From positions 64,001-128,000 of IMG/VR virus record IMGVR_UViG_3300042934_000547: a DNA stretch of 64,000 nt; one strand, 5' to 3'. Position 1 is the stretch's first letter. Every line of letters begins with the position of its first letter. Shown here one piece after another: positions 3,727-53,323 of the stretch. This DNA comes from a virus. The notes below the pieces were generated by a model that was given only the letters and a program-made list of their open reading frames with translations, was not told the origin of the DNA and ran no database searches. Made by a program: the position numbers and the translations under genes.

Positions 3727-6114
3727 TCAATTTATTATCCTTACTAATACTTCTTCATCTTTTGCTGCATTAGATTTTACAATACCTATATCATAAATAC
3801 CGATACCAGTTACATCAGGATTTATAAATAAATTCAAGACATATTTGTATACCTTCATAACATAGGAAATATTTGTTCCTGATATTGAATATATTTTAGC
3901 CCAACCTGTAAAATTACCAACTAATATTAAAACATTGTCGTCAATAGAAAGGGCAATGGAGGCAACACTATTATTCAATAGTGTACCTATATTATCTGCA
4001 TATATATCTAATCTATAAGTAAGGGCTGTTCCTGATACTGAATATACCTTAGCCCTACCTGTAAAAGATCCACCTAATATTAGGGTATTACCGTCAGGTG
4101 AGAATGTAGAAGCATAAACGGTAGAATTGAGAGCTGTACCTATATTATCTGCATATATATCTGATATATAAGTAAGGGCTGTTCCTGATACTGAATATAC
4201 CTTAGCCATACCTGTAAACCCTCCACCTAATATTAAGACATTTCCATTAGGAGAGAATGTACAAGATTCGATACCATTATCTAAAATTGTATTATTATTA
4301 TCTGCATATATATCTGATACATAAGTGATAACATTTCCTGATACTGAATATACCTTAGCCCTACCTGTAAAAAACCCGCCTAATACTAATATATTTCCAT
4401 TTGGGGAGAATGTACACCTTCTAACCTCATTATATATAGGAGTGACACCATTATCTGCATATATATCCGATACATAAGTAATAACGTTTCCTGATACTGA
4501 ATATACCTTAGCATAACCTGTAAAAAACCCACTTAATACTAAGACAGCTCCATCGGGGGAAAATACACAACTTCTGACTTCCTTATCTAAAACTGTACTA
4601 TTATTATCTGCATATATATCTGATATATATATAATTTTTGCTCCTGATACTGAATATACCTTAGCTTTACCTCCAAAAAATCCACCTAATATTAGGGTAT
4701 TACCGTCAGGTGAGAATGTAGAAGCATAAACGGTAGAATTGAGAGCTGTACCTATATTATCTGCATATATATCTGATATATAGGTAAGAGTGGTCCCTAA
4801 TACTGAAAATAACTTAGCCCCACCCGTAAAAGCTCCACCCAATATCAAAATAGACTTATCAGGAGAAAGAGTGCAAAAATTAATATTATTATTTAAACCA
4901 GTAGTACCATTATCAGAATATATATCTGATACATAAGTAATGGCTGTTCCTGATACTGAATAGATTTTAGCTTTACTAGCAAAACCCCCACCTATTACTA
5001 GCGTTTTATTATCAGGAGAAAATGCATGAGTTCTAACAACATTATCTAAAATTGTATTATCATTATCTGCATATATATCTGATATATAAGTAAGGGATGT
5101 TCCTGATACTGAATATACCTTAGCCATACCTGTAAAAATCCCACCTAATACTAAGACAGCTCCATTAGGGGAAAATTCACAAGAGTAAACAACATTATCT
5201 AAAATTATATTATTATTATCTGCATATATATCTGATACATAAGTGATAACATTTCCTGATACTGAATATACCTTAGCCCTACCTGTAAAAACCCCACCTA
5301 ATACTAAGATAGCTCCATTAGGGGAAAATGTACAAAAATTAACATTAGAACTTAAACCAGTAGTATCATTATCTGCATATATATCTGATATATAAGTAAG
5401 AGATGTTCCTGATACTGAATATACCTTAGCATAACCCGTAAATCCTCCACCTAATATTAAGGTCTTACTATCAGGAGAAAATGCACAGGATATGCTACTA
5501 CTACTCAAAACGGTATTATCATTATCTGCATATATATCTGATATATAAGTAAGGGATGTTTCCGATACTGAATATACCTTAGCCCTACCTGTAAAAATCC
5601 CACCTAATACTAAGACAGCTCCATTAGGGGAAAATTCAGAGAAGTTAACAGTGTTACTCAAAACTGTACCTATATTATCTGCATATATATCTGATATATA
5701 GGTAAGGGATGTTTCCGATACTGAATATATTTTGGCTTTACCTGTAAAAGTCCCACCTACTATTAAAATTTTACCATCAGGTGAGAATGTGAAGGTCAGA
5801 ATATTACCACCTAATATACTACCTATATTATCTGCATATATATCTGATATATAAGTAAGGGCTGTTCCTGATATTGAATAGATTTTAGCTCTACCTGCAA
5901 AAGATCCACCTAATACTAAACTTTTACCATTAGGGGAGAATACACAAGAATAAGGAACGGTATTAAATGGACTGAGATATGGTTTATCTCTTACTTCGCC
6001 TTTAATAGTATATACTATATCTCCTATTTTTAAGGATTCACCAGCTATATACGTTACATCTCTTCCATCTATCTCTTTCCCACCACTTTGCCCTGTTAAA
6101 ATTGCATTTGCCAT
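3727..6114 (-). CDS. 14-repeat beta-propeller-like tail protein
   Basis: After about 50 N-terminal residues the 795-residue protein consists of 14 near-identical units of 48-51 residues. Each carries FSPNG or FSPDG, LVLGG or LILGG, FTGRAKVYSVSG and, between units, SDIYADN. The pattern resembles WD40/YVTN-type propeller blades, and 14 blades would make two seven-bladed propellers. The last about 60 residues are a different beta domain. The gene sits in the fibre operon, so a receptor- or polysaccharide-binding role is likely but inferred. Blade-encoding DNA is so similar that recombination could change copy number. No enzyme motif is seen. Confidence 0.75.
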   Translation of the reverse strand: MANAILTGQSGGKEIDGRDVTYIAGESLKIGDIVYTIKGEVRDKPYLSPFNTVPYSCVFSPNGKSLVLGGSFAGRAKIYSISGTALTYISDIYADNIGSILGGNILTFTFSPDGKILIVGGTFTGKAKIYSVSETSLTYISDIYADNIGTVLSNTVNFSEFSPNGAVLVLGGIFTGRAKVYSVSETSLTYISDIYADNDNTVLSSSSISCAFSPDSKTLILGGGFTGYAKVYSVSGTSLTYISDIYADNDTTGLSSNVNFCTFSPNGAILVLGGVFTGRAKVYSVSGNVITYVSDIYADNNNIILDNVVYSCEFSPNGAVLVLGGIFTGMAKVYSVSGTSLTYISDIYADNDNTILDNVVRTHAFSPDNKTLVIGGGFASKAKIYSVSGTAITYVSDIYSDNGTTGLNNNINFCTLSPDKSILILGGAFTGGAKLFSVLGTTLTYISDIYADNIGTALNSTVYASTFSPDGNTLILGGFFGGKAKVYSVSGAKIIYISDIYADNNSTVLDKEVRSCVFSPDGAVLVLSGFFTGYAKVYSVSGNVITYVSDIYADNGVTPIYNEVRRCTFSPNGNILVLGGFFTGRAKVYSVSGNVITYVSDIYADNNNTILDNGIESCTFSPNGNVLILGGGFTGMAKVYSVSGTALTYISDIYADNIGTALNSTVYASTFSPDGNTLILGGSFTGRAKVYSVSGTALTYRLDIYADNIGTLLNNSVASIALSIDDNVLILVGNFTGWAKIYSISGTNISYVMKVYKYVLNLFINPDVTGIGIYDIGIVKSNAAKDEEVLVRIIN
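3860..5960 (-). repeat. Tandem repeat array encoding propeller blades
   Basis: Fourteen direct repeats of about 144-153 bp. Two copies are identical over about 100 bp (4070-4170 and 4682-4782, offset 612 bp), far more alike than their neighbours, which suggests recent duplication or gene conversion. Confidence 0.85.
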
Positions 6115-7929: not shown

Positions 7930-8619
7930 TTATTGGAAACTAAAATCTATACAACCATCGATTTCATTGTATTTAATTCTAGCAGATTTTAGTTTTACTT
8001 CTCCAGATTGTGACTCTACGCTTCCTAAAGCAGAAACATCACCACTGTTTTTGACATCTAATAATTTTCTATATGTATCTGGAGCTCCAATACTTGTAGC
8101 CTCAAATGCAAACGATGATTCAACATCATCTACTATAGAAAACTTTTGTTTAAGTTCACCGTTATTTTGATGGATAGCACCAAAATCCCCAGTACCTAAT
8201 GTAATTATTTCACCAAGAGCAGTTGGTTTATAATCGATTTTCATAAATCCAGATGCATTTATTCCAGCTAATGTGTCAGCATCCAACCCACTACCTGCTC
8301 CATCATTACCACTATGCCATAATTTAAATTCAGTTCCATCCTTTTTCTGAATAAAGGCATCACCATCTGTTGCTCTTAAGAATGTATCTTTGGTTATATC
8401 CTCAGTATGTTTAAATAATAAACCATGTCCCATTACATCTGATTTAATTACCTCTATGCCATTAGCACCAATAATACTAGTACCATTTAATGACAGCCCT
8501 ACTTTGCTGAATGCAACACCAGCATTCGGAATTGTAATCATTATACCTTTGCCTGCTTTAATATATTCCTCGGCACGTATATCCCCATATATTATCACAT
8601 CATGTAGTGTATTATACAT
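7930..8619 (-). CDS. Tail fibre protein, first gene of the fibre operon
   Basis: This 229-residue protein has LWHSGNDGAGSGLDADTLAG near residues 100-120, a motif found in shafts of many phage tail fibres. The rest is beta-rich with several Gly/Asn turns, and it ends IDGCIDFSFQ. It follows a class L promoter (8654-8665), whose TA lies 35 nt before the start codon, and the ribosome-binding site AAAGGAGAATAATA. It therefore probably opens a late operon running to the left edge of the window. Confidence 0.75.
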   Translation of the reverse strand: MYNTLHDVIIYGDIRAEEYIKAGKGIMITIPNAGVAFSKVGLSLNGTSIIGANGIEVIKSDVMGHGLLFKHTEDITKDTFLRATDGDAFIQKKDGTEFKLWHSGNDGAGSGLDADTLAGINASGFMKIDYKPTALGEIITLGTGDFGAIHQNNGELKQKFSIVDDVESSFAFEATSIGAPDTYRKLLDVKNSGDVSALGSVESQSGEVKLKSARIKYNEIDGCIDFSFQ

Positions 8620-8653
8620 TATTATTCTCCTTTCTTTGTGAAAGATTTTTAAT

Positions 8654-8665
8654 TATTAAAATGTT
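8654..8665 (-). promoter_or_regulatory. Class L (late-type) promoter of the fibre operon
   Basis: On the minus strand this reads AACA-TTTTAA-TA, followed by ATTAAA and the start codon 35 nt later. It lies directly downstream of the terminator of the large RNA. Confidence 0.6.
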
Positions 8666-8685
8666 CAATAATACCGTCAAATCAC

Positions 8686-8717
8686 AAAAAATAAAGCACT
8701 GACGATTAAGCCAGTGC
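8686..8717 (-). terminator. Terminator of the large structured RNA
   Basis: Minus-strand hairpin of 6 bp (GCACTG with CAGTGC, 10-nt loop) followed by TTTATTTTTT. Confidence 0.85.
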
Positions 8718-9268
8718 CCGGCTTCCAAATTATTTATATAATCCCGAGTATATCTTATAATTTGGATTCCTCTCCTAATGGTAACTCTCTACTCATTAGG
8801 ATAGTTTGTTACACACTGATTTCTCCCACTAAACCAGTGTCTATTAACCTGCTAAGTATAACAATTTATCATACACGTAAAAAGTATAATATTTACTATT
8901 TCGTTATATATGATATCTGATACACCAATGTATACCTAATCGATAATGTGACATTGATATACCAACTATTTATAAAGTTATATCATCTTTCTCCTAAAGT
9001 GATAGATAACTCTGTTCCGGTTTTGTTATACTCATGCAGTCTTATCTCATGTAAGTAAACCATGAAACAAAATTTTCCCCGAATCACAATTTCTAAATGC
9101 GTACCCCATACACATTCAGTAAATTCCCTAGCTTAATTTCACGTCGATTAGATATATTTCTTACGCTTCGACATTTAATTAAACCGTACACGTCCTCCCT
9201 TTTATGTATTTACTTTAGTTTCCCACACTAAAGTATCAGAATGACGATCAATATTACATTTATATCAT
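8686..9268 (-). ncRNA. Large structured non-coding RNA, about 580 nt, own promoter and terminator
   Basis: No gene is visible on the transcribed strand. The unit is bounded by a class E promoter (9271-9296) and an intrinsic terminator (8686-8717). Many perfect or near-perfect helices can be read: 9211-9218 with 9228-9235 (8 bp); 9143-9147 with 9168-9172; 9093-9102 with 9110-9119 (10 bp, two G-U); 8956-8960 with 8980-8984 and 8964-8967 with 8976-8979; 8813-8818 with 8835-8840; 8773-8780 with 8794-8801 (8 bp); 8724-8733 with 8757-8766 (10 bp). Size, ornate structure and phage context resemble the large RNA classes ROOL and GOLLD, but I cannot assign it to either from the sequence alone. The 5' end is estimated from the promoter. 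Confidence 0.8.
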
Positions 9269-9270
9269 CA

Positions 9271-9296
9271 TTCAAATCTATAATATATATTTGAAA
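9271..9296 (-). promoter_or_regulatory. Class E (early-type) promoter of the large RNA
   Basis: The minus strand has TTTCAAATATATATTATA followed by GATTTGAATG. The site also forms an inverted repeat (TTCAAAT and ATTTGAA, 11 nt apart). It stands just behind the terminator of the helicase operon, so it can only serve the large RNA or read on into the fibre operon. Confidence 0.75.
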
Positions 9297-9313
9297 TATT
9301 TCAATTTTACACT

Positions 9314-9343
9314 AAAAAAGAAGAGTAGAAATTAATCTACTCT
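9314..9343 (-). terminator. Terminator of the helicase operon
   Basis: Minus-strand hairpin AGAGTAGA / TCTACTCT (8 bp, loop TTAATT) followed by TCTTTTTT. Confidence 0.85.
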
Positions 9344-9348
9344 CGATA

Positions 9349-9474
9349 TTATTTTTCTTTGTTTATATTAAATATATCCTCATCATTAACGATAAGATTT
9401 ATAACATTCCCGTCAACTCTGGTAACAATTATTTTATCATGACCATCCATATGAATATCCATAGATACACTCAT
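9349..9474 (-). CDS. Small unknown protein, 41 aa
   Basis: This short frame begins at an ATG that shares one base with the stop codon of the helicase gene (TAATG) and ends just before a terminator, the arrangement expected for a translationally coupled last gene. The product begins MSVSMDIHMDGHDKIIV and is acidic (many Asp and Glu); no motif is recognised. Confidence 0.6.
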   Translation of the reverse strand: MSVSMDIHMDGHDKIIVTRVDGNVINLIVNDEDIFNINKEK

Positions 9475-11033
9475 TATTTATTTCTCCTTATTGGTATTAT
9501 TCGCCTATCGATTCCCTTTGGCAACATAGGTAATTCACCAATCAATAAATTATTAGATTTTTTAAGAGCTTCTTGACCTTTAAAATACACATCATCATCA
9601 TTAAGTCTGAATTCAGTACAAGATTTAGCCAATCTTGTGTATATAGGCTTTCTATATCTATAATAATCATTGATTGCTTTAAATCCTAAATCAATTAAAT
9701 CGTAATATTCAGTATCCATTCCTCTAGTACGACCAAAGGATTGTTCTGCTAATATTTTTGATTTAAATGGTTCAGCAATATTATTTACAGATTGTAAGTC
9801 CTTAACGTCACTTGCTGTACCTAAAGACTTTGTTGTAGATAATATAATTCTTTTATCAAGTTGCTCCAATTTTATTCCTTTTGGAGTATATGTAGTGTAA
9901 ATGCCTAGCTGGTCTTCTATTAATGGGAATGTGTTAATCAAGTAGTCGTACACTACCAGTATAGCGGCATTTGTGGCTATATAAAATATGTTCTTCTTAC
10001 CATTATGGAGTGCTTTATATAGTAATATATTTAGCATATTATAAAAAGAAGGTTCTTTTACGATATACATAGAGTAAGCGTTTTTATCAAACCCATATAC
10101 ATTCTTACATCTTGATATAACAGTCGGTGTTGGTCTTGAATTATATATCAAAGCTTTATAATGAGTATGTGGATCATTTTCTTCATCGTAAAGTGATATA
10201 GACGGAACATTCTTAAAATATAACTGAAATATCTTATTTGCTCTATCATCAGACTTACCCGGAGTTGCTGTTACATAAAATGTCTTATATGTATTAGTAT
10301 AGAAATCAATCTTACATACGTTATCAAAGTTAAGATGTGCTTCATCATATACTTTAATACCAATTTTCATATATCGGAATAATTCAGTTATTTTATCCCA
10401 TCCTCTGGTATCTCCATATGATTTAATAGTATCATGTGATGCTATAATATACTTTATATCACTGATATCTTTTCTATGAAATAATCTGTCGATACTACCA
10501 GCACCTTGGATAAAATAAACGCCTTGTGGTCTGGTATCAGTATAATCATAAACGCATTTCTTCCACTGTGTCATCCAGTCATTATAAGACATAATGATTA
10601 TACTTCTAAGCTGTAATTTAGCTATAGAAGTGATTGTACAATATGTCTTACCTTTACCTGTTTTTAAATTGATTGATAACTGCGATTTACGTTGATTATT
10701 AGGATATTTGCCCTCACCACACATGAAATCAATCGTTTCTAGTTGAACGTCATTACGTGGTTTATACCTAACCTTAATCTGGTCTACTTTATCCTTTGGA
10801 TCACCATTATAAACAACGTTAGCATTGGTATTGAATAACCTTTCTAGATAGAGAATATCAATACCCCTTGGAATAATAAGTCGTTTTTCTTTTTCAATAT
10901 ATTCCATACACATCTCGATGTGTTTATGAGTTAACGGGTCCCATAATTTAAAGTTATATTCTAGCTGTTTACAATCGCCAAGATTGTAATCATTAATAAC
11001 AATTTTGGTACTATAAACATCAATTTTAGCCAT
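9474..11033 (-). CDS. SF2 DNA/RNA helicase, UvsW-like
   Basis: The 519-residue protein has the motifs of superfamily 2 helicases in order: motif I TGKGKT (125-130), motif II DEAH (230-233), motif III TATP (255-258) and motif VI QSFGRTRG near residue 425. An N-terminal domain of about 100 residues precedes motif I, as in T4 UvsW and related phage ATPases that unwind branched DNA and R-loops. Substrate is inferred from family. It lies in an operon with a small membrane protein upstream (1 bp gap) and a 41-residue gene downstream. Confidence 0.85.
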   Translation of the reverse strand: MAKIDVYSTKIVINDYNLGDCKQLEYNFKLWDPLTHKHIEMCMEYIEKEKRLIIPRGIDILYLERLFNTNANVVYNGDPKDKVDQIKVRYKPRNDVQLETIDFMCGEGKYPNNQRKSQLSINLKTGKGKTYCTITSIAKLQLRSIIIMSYNDWMTQWKKCVYDYTDTRPQGVYFIQGAGSIDRLFHRKDISDIKYIIASHDTIKSYGDTRGWDKITELFRYMKIGIKVYDEAHLNFDNVCKIDFYTNTYKTFYVTATPGKSDDRANKIFQLYFKNVPSISLYDEENDPHTHYKALIYNSRPTPTVISRCKNVYGFDKNAYSMYIVKEPSFYNMLNILLYKALHNGKKNIFYIATNAAILVVYDYLINTFPLIEDQLGIYTTYTPKGIKLEQLDKRIILSTTKSLGTASDVKDLQSVNNIAEPFKSKILAEQSFGRTRGMDTEYYDLIDLGFKAINDYYRYRKPIYTRLAKSCTEFRLNDDDVYFKGQEALKKSNNLLIGELPMLPKGIDRRIIPIRRNK

Positions 11034-12351: not shown

Positions 12352-12963
12352 ACATACTTCGTCATCTCTATCATCTAAATATTTAAATGTGTTGAGTAAC
12401 TCATTATCACTTAATTTAGGTAACATGTTATACATACCCATAACAATACGATATGCATTAGTTTTTTCATATTCTAATTTGGCTTCTAAGTCAAAAACTC
12501 TATCAAAATCTCTACCAAATAAATTATCTCTTATTTCTTCCTCTAGTTCACCAATTGTATCATTAGTAAATACTGCACTGTATAATGATATCAGAAACTC
12601 ACTGAGTAAGTATTCGTTCTTGTTAAACATCAAAAATATCATTTCTAAGAACTTGTTATTTTTAAGTTCATACGATAATAAAATATCCAATTTTTCCAAT
12701 AGGAATGTGGAATCTATCATCTTGATATTATTCTCCTGTGCAATCTTGCGGATTCTAATCTCATCATCCAATATAACGTTTTCTGACTTAAATACCACAA
12801 CTAACTCTGATTTAAGTACATACAAATCGTCTGATATAATTAGATTACCATACACAGTTCTTGTTGCTGAAGGTTTATATCCTAAACTTTTTAATTTTTC
12901 TATAACCTTCTCATATTCTTTTTCACGACCCTTAATATTTCCGATCAAATTTGCTTCTCTCAT
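12340..12963 (-). CDS. Unknown protein, 207 aa
   Basis: The start was set at the ATG at 12963 (MREANLIGNIKG), which follows GGGAGGAAATATATATT. A longer frame opening at 13050 would run through a 13-bp hairpin and is unlikely. Residues 1-100 look like an alpha/beta domain with SDDLYVLKSELVVVFKSENV, which weakly recalls nucleases or restriction-like folds. Residues 100-200 are helical. I do not recognise the family. It forms a one-gene unit between a class E promoter and a terminator. Confidence 0.65.
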   Translation of the reverse strand: MREANLIGNIKGREKEYEKVIEKLKSLGYKPSATRTVYGNLIISDDLYVLKSELVVVFKSENVILDDEIRIRKIAQENNIKMIDSTFLLEKLDILLSYELKNNKFLEMIFLMFNKNEYLLSEFLISLYSAVFTNDTIGELEEEIRDNLFGRDFDRVFDLEAKLEYEKTNAYRIVMGMYNMLPKLSDNELLNTFKYLDDRDDEVCKVV

Positions 12964-13000
12964 AATATATATTTCCTCCCATATGTAATCAATAAAAAAT

Positions 13001-51877: not shown

Positions 51878-53110
51878 TTATCCTATTAAGCTTAGTAAAG
51901 ACATTGTGTCGCTAACTGGTGGTGAAGCTATTTCTAAACTTTCATTCTCTTTTATGTATGGTCTCAATATAGTTAAAGCTTCCTCAATAGCAATCCTTTG
52001 TAATACAGGATCAGTTCGGAATTTATTCTTAAAGTCTTTTTGGGAAAATGTGACTTCTTTACGGTCTCCTATATAGAAACTCCTACCACCACCATTAAGA
52101 ACCTTATTCTTTTTAAATAAGGTAAGTAATGACATCTCATAATCAAATCCAATTTCTTGATTAAATAGCAATGGAACCGATTTACCTGATTTATTAGTCC
52201 TCGTTTTGACAATCTCAAAGTCGGCTACGTTACCATCTATATCATAGTTGCCTTCACCTTTCGATTCTCCTTCAACCAATTTACCACCGTCATTAATCCT
52301 GAACATATTTGATGCTGAATAATTAGCAGTTCTACCACCCGGTAATGTCTCACCCGGTTTTAAATAAGGTAATGAGGCTTTTTTAGGAGTTGCTGATATA
52401 TCCTCAAGTATATGATTAATTAGTATTAGTATTATATTAGCTTTCTTACATACCGGAATCACTCTCTTAAATATACCTGTATTAGTTTTAGCCGCTGATG
52501 TAGCTGCATAACCACCTGTTAAATCATCTTCGCTTGCGAAATTCTCAGGTAACAAATAGGCTAGACTATCAAGTATATAAACTGTAGGTACATACTTAAT
52601 TATAGGATTACCCATTCTATCAAAATGACCAGTATCATATTGAAATTTATCTGGATTGGATATTTTTAAATTTGCTATAGTTTTTAAACGAGTAAAAAAG
52701 TTTTCTGCTGTTATACCTTCATTTCGTCCTCGATAACAACTGTCAAATGTATCCATATCAAATTTAAGTAATTCAATCTTTCTCTCAGTAAGCATACCGA
52801 CTTCAACTAAATCCTCTAATATTAATCCACCTTTATCTATAAATGGTCTAATAATATTGCCAGCAATCTGTGTTGCTAGAGTTGATTTACCGCATCCACT
52901 TCGACCTATAATAATATTAGTAGAGCCATCTGCTATACCTAAAATATTATAATTGTACAATTCTCCATTTGGTTTAAGACCAGTAGCTTGTCTTCCATTT
53001 CTGAAGTCAATTGCTAAAAATCCTGTGGGATATCCAATATCACTACTAAGATATAATGGATCTCCTATCTTCTTCAATTCCTTCTTATATGATTCACTTA
53101 AATCATGCAT
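51878..53110 (-). CDS. RecA/UvsX-like recombinase
   Basis: The 410-residue protein has Walker A GRSGCGKST (69-77), Walker B VYILDSLAYL (about 173-182) and LILINHI near 230, the RecA core layout. A disordered DNA-binding-type loop with GGYAATSAAKT lies between. It would coat single-stranded DNA and drive recombination-dependent replication with the Rad50-like and helicase proteins of this phage. It has an unusual leader with a strong terminator-like hairpin. Confidence 0.8.
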   Translation of the reverse strand: MHDLSESYKKELKKIGDPLYLSSDIGYPTGFLAIDFRNGRQATGLKPNGELYNYNILGIADGSTNIIIGRSGCGKSTLATQIAGNIIRPFIDKGGLILEDLVEVGMLTERKIELLKFDMDTFDSCYRGRNEGITAENFFTRLKTIANLKISNPDKFQYDTGHFDRMGNPIIKYVPTVYILDSLAYLLPENFASEDDLTGGYAATSAAKTNTGIFKRVIPVCKKANIILILINHILEDISATPKKASLPYLKPGETLPGGRTANYSASNMFRINDGGKLVEGESKGEGNYDIDGNVADFEIVKTRTNKSGKSVPLLFNQEIGFDYEMSLLTLFKKNKVLNGGGRSFYIGDRKEVTFSQKDFKNKFRTDPVLQRIAIEEALTILRPYIKENESLEIASPPVSDTMSLLSLIG

Positions 53111-53160
53111 AATAACACCCTCCTGATAATCTTATCTCACTATAATGTTCCGCTATACAT

Positions 53161-53208
53161 AAAAAAGAAAAAAAAAGAAGTCGAAGGGGGACTTACGGCT
53201 TCTTTTTT
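53161..53208 (-). terminator. Terminator/attenuator upstream of the recombinase gene
   Basis: AAAAAAGAAG pairs with CTTCTTTTTT (10 bp, with CG/CG inside), followed by a long T-rich tract. It sits about 50 nt before the recombinase start codon. Confidence 0.8.
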
Positions 53209-53299
53209 ATAAATATAATTTATGGGGTAAATTAGAAGTAAGGGGTGGAATTAGTCAATCATCCTGTATGATGATTGATTTATATTACCACTTCTAATT
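53161..53299 (-). ncRNA. Short structured RNA or attenuated leader, about 135 nt
   Basis: Between the class E promoter (53298-53323) and the terminator lies AATTAGAAGT / ACTTCTAATT (53230-53239 with 53290-53299, 10 bp) enclosing TCAATCATC / GATGATTGA (53255-53263 with 53270-53278, 9 bp), with C-rich unpaired strands. No open frame is present. It is either an independent small RNA or a riboregulator of the downstream recombinase gene. Confidence 0.65.
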
Positions 53300-53323
53300 C
53301 ATATTTATAATATATATTTGAAA
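53298..53323 (-). promoter_or_regulatory. Class E promoter of the short RNA / recombinase
   Basis: Minus strand TTTCAAATATATATTATAAA then TATGAATTAG. Confidence 0.75.

What the first reader, a model, noticed from the sequence alone, without database searches (positions are those of the whole stretch)
8686..9296. Stand-alone large structured RNA of about 580 nt with its own phage promoter and terminator
This is the only stretch over 300 bases without a gene. It is bounded by a class E promoter and an intrinsic terminator, and is packed with long perfect helices (8-10 bp) but has no coding frame with a ribosome-binding site. Being under the early-type promoter while the downstream fibre operon has its own late-type promoter means the RNA is made as a separate early transcript. 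Size and complexity recall the ROOL/GOLLD group of phage-associated ornate RNAs, whose function is still unclear. It could be a member, or a new class.
Basis: partly seen in the sequence, partly recalled or inferred. Interest (0 to 1): 0.88.

Follow-up and report, generated by a model that had tools for sequence, protein, structure and literature searches.

The report
Orphan early structured RNA in jumbo phage
A giant bacterial virus carries a stand-alone gene of about 585 bases that appears to make a folded RNA instead of a protein, switched on by the virus's own injected RNA polymerase at the start of infection; it matches no known RNA family and its job is unknown.

Summary
The window lies in a 232-kb AR9/PBS1-like jumbo phage. 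The longest protein-free stretch found in it (729 nt) holds a complete transcription unit: a letter-perfect AR9-type early (virion-polymerase) promoter, AAATATATATTAT-6N-G, predicted start 9273(-); a sequence folding into about ten hairpins and a four-way junction; and an intrinsic terminator at 8719-8694. An upstream terminator and a separate late promoter (start 8654) for the fibre gene wall it off. No sense frame exceeds chance. The fold beats shuffles (z about -6 to -10; -8.3 without the terminator in one run; control windows -4.2 to +1.0). G-U pairing favours the minus strand beyond shuffles (z -4.0 and -4.7), which points to selection on this RNA and not on DNA palindromes. An RNA-seq-detected phage K long RNA shows the same signature. 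It does not match ROOL, GOLLD or OLE models or anything else in Rfam 15, and no sequence or structural relative was found in about 50 related phage records, so covariation could not be tested. A second candidate RNA with a late-type promoter lies elsewhere in the genome. Best reading: a new orphan early phage ncRNA; its trans-acting takeover role is inference only.

The parts
8688..9273 (-). predicted RNA gene, about 585 nt (3' end approximate, 8686-8690)
   Evidence: early promoter start to terminator; fold z -9.4; G-U strand asymmetry
9280..9292 (-). early promoter AAATATATATTAT, 6 nt (AGATTT) before the start G at 9273
   Evidence: identical to the AR9 vRNAP consensus; same motif precedes dozens of genes in this genome
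8694..8719 (-). intrinsic terminator stem-loop, followed by T-rich tail 8693-8684
   Evidence: stem pair probability 0.96
9239..9273 (-). 5' hairpin beginning at the predicted +1 nucleotide (13 bp)
9211..9235 (-). hairpin, 9 bp, loop GUGGGAA region
   Evidence: p 0.97
9130..9185 (-). two-part hairpin, 9 + 7 bp
   Evidence: p 0.97-0.98
9086..9127 (-). long hairpin, 18 bp
   Evidence: p 0.93
9040..9072 (-). hairpin, 12 bp with G-U pairs
   Evidence: p 0.96
8849..9039 (-). four-way junction domain closed by a 16-bp helix, three arms
   Evidence: closing helix p 0.97; covariance model R1
8810..8843 (-). hairpin, 12 bp, loop AGUGGGAG region
   Evidence: p 0.96
8773..8801 (-). hairpin, 12 bp
   Evidence: p 0.95
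8720..8770 (-). hairpin with 10-bp and 5-bp stems
   Evidence: p 0.97 and 0.93
9321..9344 (-). terminator closing the upstream operon (after the 41-aa ORF 9349-9474)
8654..8665 (-). late promoter AACA-TTTTAA-TA (start 8654) of the fibre gene 7930-8619
   Evidence: matches the AR9 late consensus AACA-(6N)-TA/G; the only such motif in 8501-9500 on either strand

Best explanation
This is a stand-alone gene for a structured noncoding RNA of about 585 nt. Shown by sequence: its own virion-RNA-polymerase (early) promoter, its own terminator, insulation from both neighbours, no coding frame, and a fold beyond chance with a strand-specific G-U signature. Inferred: the injected polymerase makes it within minutes of infection and not from a late promoter; the 5' hairpin starting at +1 and the 3' terminator stem protect it from exonucleases, so it accumulates as a stable RNA. 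Inferred and weak: it acts in trans during takeover, most likely as a scaffold or decoy that binds a host or phage protein or RNP. My confidence is about 0.87 that it is a real structured RNA gene and about 0.3 for the takeover scaffold/decoy role; the figure given is for the first part with the early timing.
For: Perfect early promoter and terminator. Among perfect early promoters in the genome nearly all lie within about 100 nt of a gene; here the next gene is 654 nt away. z of the fold without terminator -8.3, controls -4.2 to +1.0. G-U gain on the sense strand -54.7 kcal/mol against -37.2 in shuffles, antisense -4.1 against -13.3, asymmetry z -4.0 and -4.7; six control windows -2.0 to +1.3. 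In helices defined without G-U, internal mismatches were 5 G-U and 0 A-C. An RNA-seq-detected phage K long RNA region gives z -6.3 and asymmetry -3.0. Longest ORF not beyond chance; no translated similarity beyond the shared promoter motif.
Against: No transcript data. No relative found, so no covariation. Several other intergenic stretches of this and related AT-rich phages also fold with z below -5, so a low z alone is not special here. The G-U asymmetry measure is my own, with few controls and 24-60 shuffles. No ncRNA at the same place in relatives.
Confidence: 0.78

Rival explanations
1. A long regulatory leader: the RNA is the 5' part of an early fibre-operon transcript, and the terminator is an attenuator that can be read through.
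For: Same strand as the fibre gene, 69-75 nt upstream of it; phiKZ has structured 5'-UTR-derived RNAs (PMC8545117).
Against: The terminator is strong, the fibre gene has its own consensus late promoter downstream of it, no alternative antiterminator pairing was seen in the fold (not specifically searched), and fibre proteins are normally needed late.
Confidence: 0.08
2. One or more small-protein genes or minigenes hidden in a structured mRNA (for example the 32-codon GTG frame 9191-9093, the 22-codon ATG frame from 9115, or the AUG-AUA-UAA minigene at 8986, which recalls the lambda bar minigene).
For: Seven purine-rich-site plus start combinations against 2.0 in shuffles.
Against: Longest ORF below the shuffle mean; no translated similarity in relatives; ribosome-site spacings poor; energy-based count of ribosome-binding-like sites not beyond shuffles (4 against 2.7; 89 of 300 reach it).
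Confidence: 0.06
3. A DNA element (origin, cruciform or recombination site) or decayed DNA rich in inverted repeats, without an RNA function.
For: Inverted repeats are common in intergenic DNA of these phages; the fold without G-U pairs is nearly as strong on either strand (-98.0 and -94.3).
Against: Strand-specific G-U compensation, a perfect early promoter and terminator in the same orientation.
Confidence: 0.07
4. A very diverged ROOL/GOLLD-type RNA-only cage.
For: Size (ROOL model 574 positions), phage location, stand-alone transcription.
Against: No covariance-model match; no tRNA genes; few cytosines, so the GGGA-rich loops have no CCC/CUCC partner within the RNA for kissing loops.
Confidence: 0.04

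Closest known systems
Staphylococcus phage K long noncoding RNAs (PMC9241854)
   Same: Long intergenic RNA of a phage of a Gram-positive host; one, with the highest read count, is made from its own early promoter; the region tested shows the same fold and G-U signature.
   Different: Next to tRNA genes; different phage family (Herelleviridae) that relies on host polymerase (own knowledge); no sequence similarity.
ROOL RNA (Rfam RF03087)
   Same: Phage/prophage RNA of about 575 nt, function unknown.
   Different: No model match; usually near tRNA islands, here none; predicted fold simpler, no pseudoknot shown.
GOLLD RNA (Rfam RF02032)
   Same: Large phage RNA.
   Different: No model match; GOLLD often exceeds 800 nt, lies near tRNAs and rises at lysis (PMC12286853), whereas this is under an early promoter.
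phiR1-37 misc_4 (PMC4848604)
   Same: Intergenic ncRNA of about 300 nt seen by RNA-seq in a related two-polymerase jumbo phage.
   Different: No sequence similarity; no sense-strand G-U asymmetry (z +0.7); different genomic place.
phiKZ ncRNAs found by Grad-seq (PMC8545117)
   Same: ncRNAs of a jumbo phage with its own polymerases.
   Different: About 100 and 180 nt, derived from UTRs, not a stand-alone unit.

Membership tests
ROOL (RF03087) | match to the ROOL covariance model | tested here: not met
   no match at E<=10 in the genome and none at the locus; the 14 control genomes gave no hit either, so there is no positive control for the search
ROOL (RF03087) | usually near phage tRNA genes | tested here: not met
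   no tRNA in window or rest of genome
ROOL (RF03087) | homo-octameric or similar RNA-only cage by kissing loops and A-minor contacts | not testable with these tools
   needs biophysics
GOLLD (RF02032) | match to the GOLLD covariance model (conserved 3' domain) | tested here: not met
   no match at E<=10
OLE (RF01071) | match to the OLE covariance model | tested here: not met
   no match; no control genome rang
AR9-type early (vRNAP) transcription unit | AAATATATATTAT-(6N)-G promoter | tested here: met
   13/13 plus G at the start
AR9-type early (vRNAP) transcription unit | transcript present early, independent of protein synthesis | not testable with these tools
   no infection RNA-seq for this phage
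stand-alone phage structured ncRNA | own promoter and terminator, no ORF, fold beyond chance | tested here: met
stand-alone phage structured ncRNA | base pairs supported by covariation in relatives | tested here: inconclusive
   no relative found by BLAST, nhmmer, exact patterns or a covariance model in about 50 records

The most novel reading that the evidence does not exclude
The founding member of a new class of virion-polymerase-made structured RNAs in AR9/phiKZ-like jumbo phages, which the phage deploys as its first non-protein effector at host takeover; a second RNA gene with a late-type promoter at G000:218002 would make a temporally split pair.
Probability: 0.25. Interest if true: 0.85.

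Novelty: new variant of a known kind. Interest (0 to 1): 0.6.

Why it matters
Phage RNAs of this size are few and none has a known function. This one has clean, predicted ends, so it can be made and tested directly. It would show that an injected virion RNA polymerase devotes a whole promoter to a noncoding RNA, making a structured RNA one of the first products of a jumbo-phage infection.

Tried and rejected
Rfam scans of the locus and genome: nothing credible. ROOL, GOLLD, OLE models: nothing; RF01998 was tried by mistake for GOLLD and is a group II intron family. Sequence relatives: own relatives in IMG/VR, phages, plasmids, five exact-pattern scans of IMG/VR, four from this RNA and one from the second RNA: only short chance matches; one 18-base pattern gave three contigs with no extension. 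Single-sequence covariance model of the junction domain over 50 records: only itself. GTDB scan brought three distant relatives of the helicase, none closer. Hidden protein: rejected. Ribosome or anti-Shine-Dalgarno sponge: a raw motif count looked enriched (10 against 3.1) but the energy-based count did not, so dropped. Diversity-generating template repeat: no copy of the body elsewhere in the genome. Same-position RNA behind the helicase in relatives: absent. One other early-promoter leader over 300 nt proved to be a real gene (L009 17383).

Full report
Where it is. The window is bases 64001-128000 of a 231,975-base virus record. It encodes split RNA polymerase subunits, a terminase and DNA polymerase parts typical of phiKZ-like jumbo phages. 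The helicase next to the finding is 34% identical to that of Bacillus phage AR9 and at most about 50% to relatives in IMG/VR. So this is an AR9/PBS1-like phage with no close relative at hand; records very near it may have been left out of the collections.

The unit. AR9 early transcripts start at AAATATATATTAT-(6N)-G and late ones at AACA-(6N)-TA/G (PMC5312081). At 9292-9280 on the minus strand the early motif is perfect, followed by AGATTT and the start G at 9273. The same motif, with A or G at position three, stands before dozens of genes here, nearly always within about 100 nt of the start codon; from 9273 the next gene is 654 nt away. One other early promoter with a long apparent leader (L009 17383, 372 nt) in fact precedes a plausible protein gene. 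The RNA ends at a 10-bp terminator, 8719-8694. The upstream operon ends in its own terminator (9344-9321), and the fibre gene has a consensus late promoter starting at 8654, the only late motif in the kilobase. The interval is the longest protein-free stretch found in the record (729 nt).

Not a protein. The longest sense frame is 34 codons; shuffles average 38. Six-frame fragments show no similarity to relatives other than through the promoter motif.

Structure. The MFE of the predicted transcript is -170 kcal/mol against -118 in dinucleotide shuffles (z -9.4); without the terminator z is -8.3, against -4.2 to +1.0 for 39 windows of the same phage. With fewer shuffles the same core gave -6.0, so the exact z is soft. 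The fold is a row of hairpins plus a four-way junction (9039-8849) closed by a 16-bp helix, most with pair probability above 0.9. The first hairpin begins at the predicted +1 base.

Which strand. Other intergenic stretches in these AT-rich phages also fold well, so I asked whether the pairing is that of RNA on the transcribed strand. G-U pairs stabilise the minus-strand RNA by 54.7 kcal/mol (shuffles 37.2) but the plus strand by only 4.1 (shuffles 13.3); the asymmetry has z -4.0 and -4.7. In helices defined without G-U, internal mismatches are five G-U and no A-C. DNA-level palindromes would not do this. Six control windows gave -2.0 to +1.3; a region of the RNA-seq-detected long RNA of phage K gave -3.0 and phiR1-37 misc_4 +0.7. 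The measure is ad hoc and rests on few controls, but it is the only evidence of selection on the RNA available without relatives.

Relatives. None found: BLAST and nhmmer on fetched loci, whole records of 50 related phages, phage and plasmid collections, exact patterns in IMG/VR, and a single-sequence covariance model of the junction over 50 records. Behind the helicase in nine relatives lie ordinary genes. Covariation is therefore untested, neither supporting nor refuting.

Known families. No credible Rfam match at the locus or in the genome; ROOL, GOLLD and OLE were tried by name, though no control genome rang for ROOL and OLE. ROOL and GOLLD usually lie near tRNA islands (PMC12286853); this genome has no tRNA gene. 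So it is not filed under them. In mode of expression the nearest analogue is the phage K long RNA with its own early promoter (PMC9241854; the paper's text and table exchange the two names lnc001 and lnc002).

Function. Shown: promoter class, ends, structure. Inferred: early accumulation of a stable RNA. A role as a scaffold or decoy in takeover is a guess from timing. A ribosome-sponge idea was tested and dropped.

A second candidate. At G000:218002-about 218470 (+) (L017:10002-10470) a late-type promoter leads into a 579-nt protein-free gap with fold z -5.2 and G-U asymmetry -3.1, also without Rfam match or relatives. If both are real, the phage carries one early and one late structured RNA gene.

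Noticed in passing
L017:10002-10470 (G000:218002-218470, +): Second candidate structured ncRNA gene with a late-type promoter (AACAATATAATA) in a 579-nt protein-free gap; z -5.2, G-U asymmetry z -3.1; no Rfam match.
   Followed up: partly
L009:12203-12661: Protein-free gap with strong fold on both strands (z -7.6 and -5.4) but no clear promoter and no strand asymmetry.
   Followed up: partly
window 53131-53300 (-): Perfect early promoter (start 53300) with an unusual structured leader of about 190 nt before the recombinase-like gene 51878-53110.
   Followed up: partly
window 3727-6114 (-): 795-aa protein in the fibre operon made of about 15 near-identical repeats (YISDIYADN...FSPDG...LILGG), beta-propeller-like.
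   Followed up: no
window 12940-12980 (-): A letter-perfect early promoter 13-mer overlaps a gene's ribosome site and start codon (GGAGGAAATATATATTATGAGAGAAGC) but lacks the start G; probably a chance look-alike.
   Followed up: partly
L163, L164, L165: AR9-like helicases lie on long contigs binned into MAGs of Tenericutes, Izemoplasmatales and Herbinix, hinting at hosts of this phage group or at binning errors.
   Followed up: no
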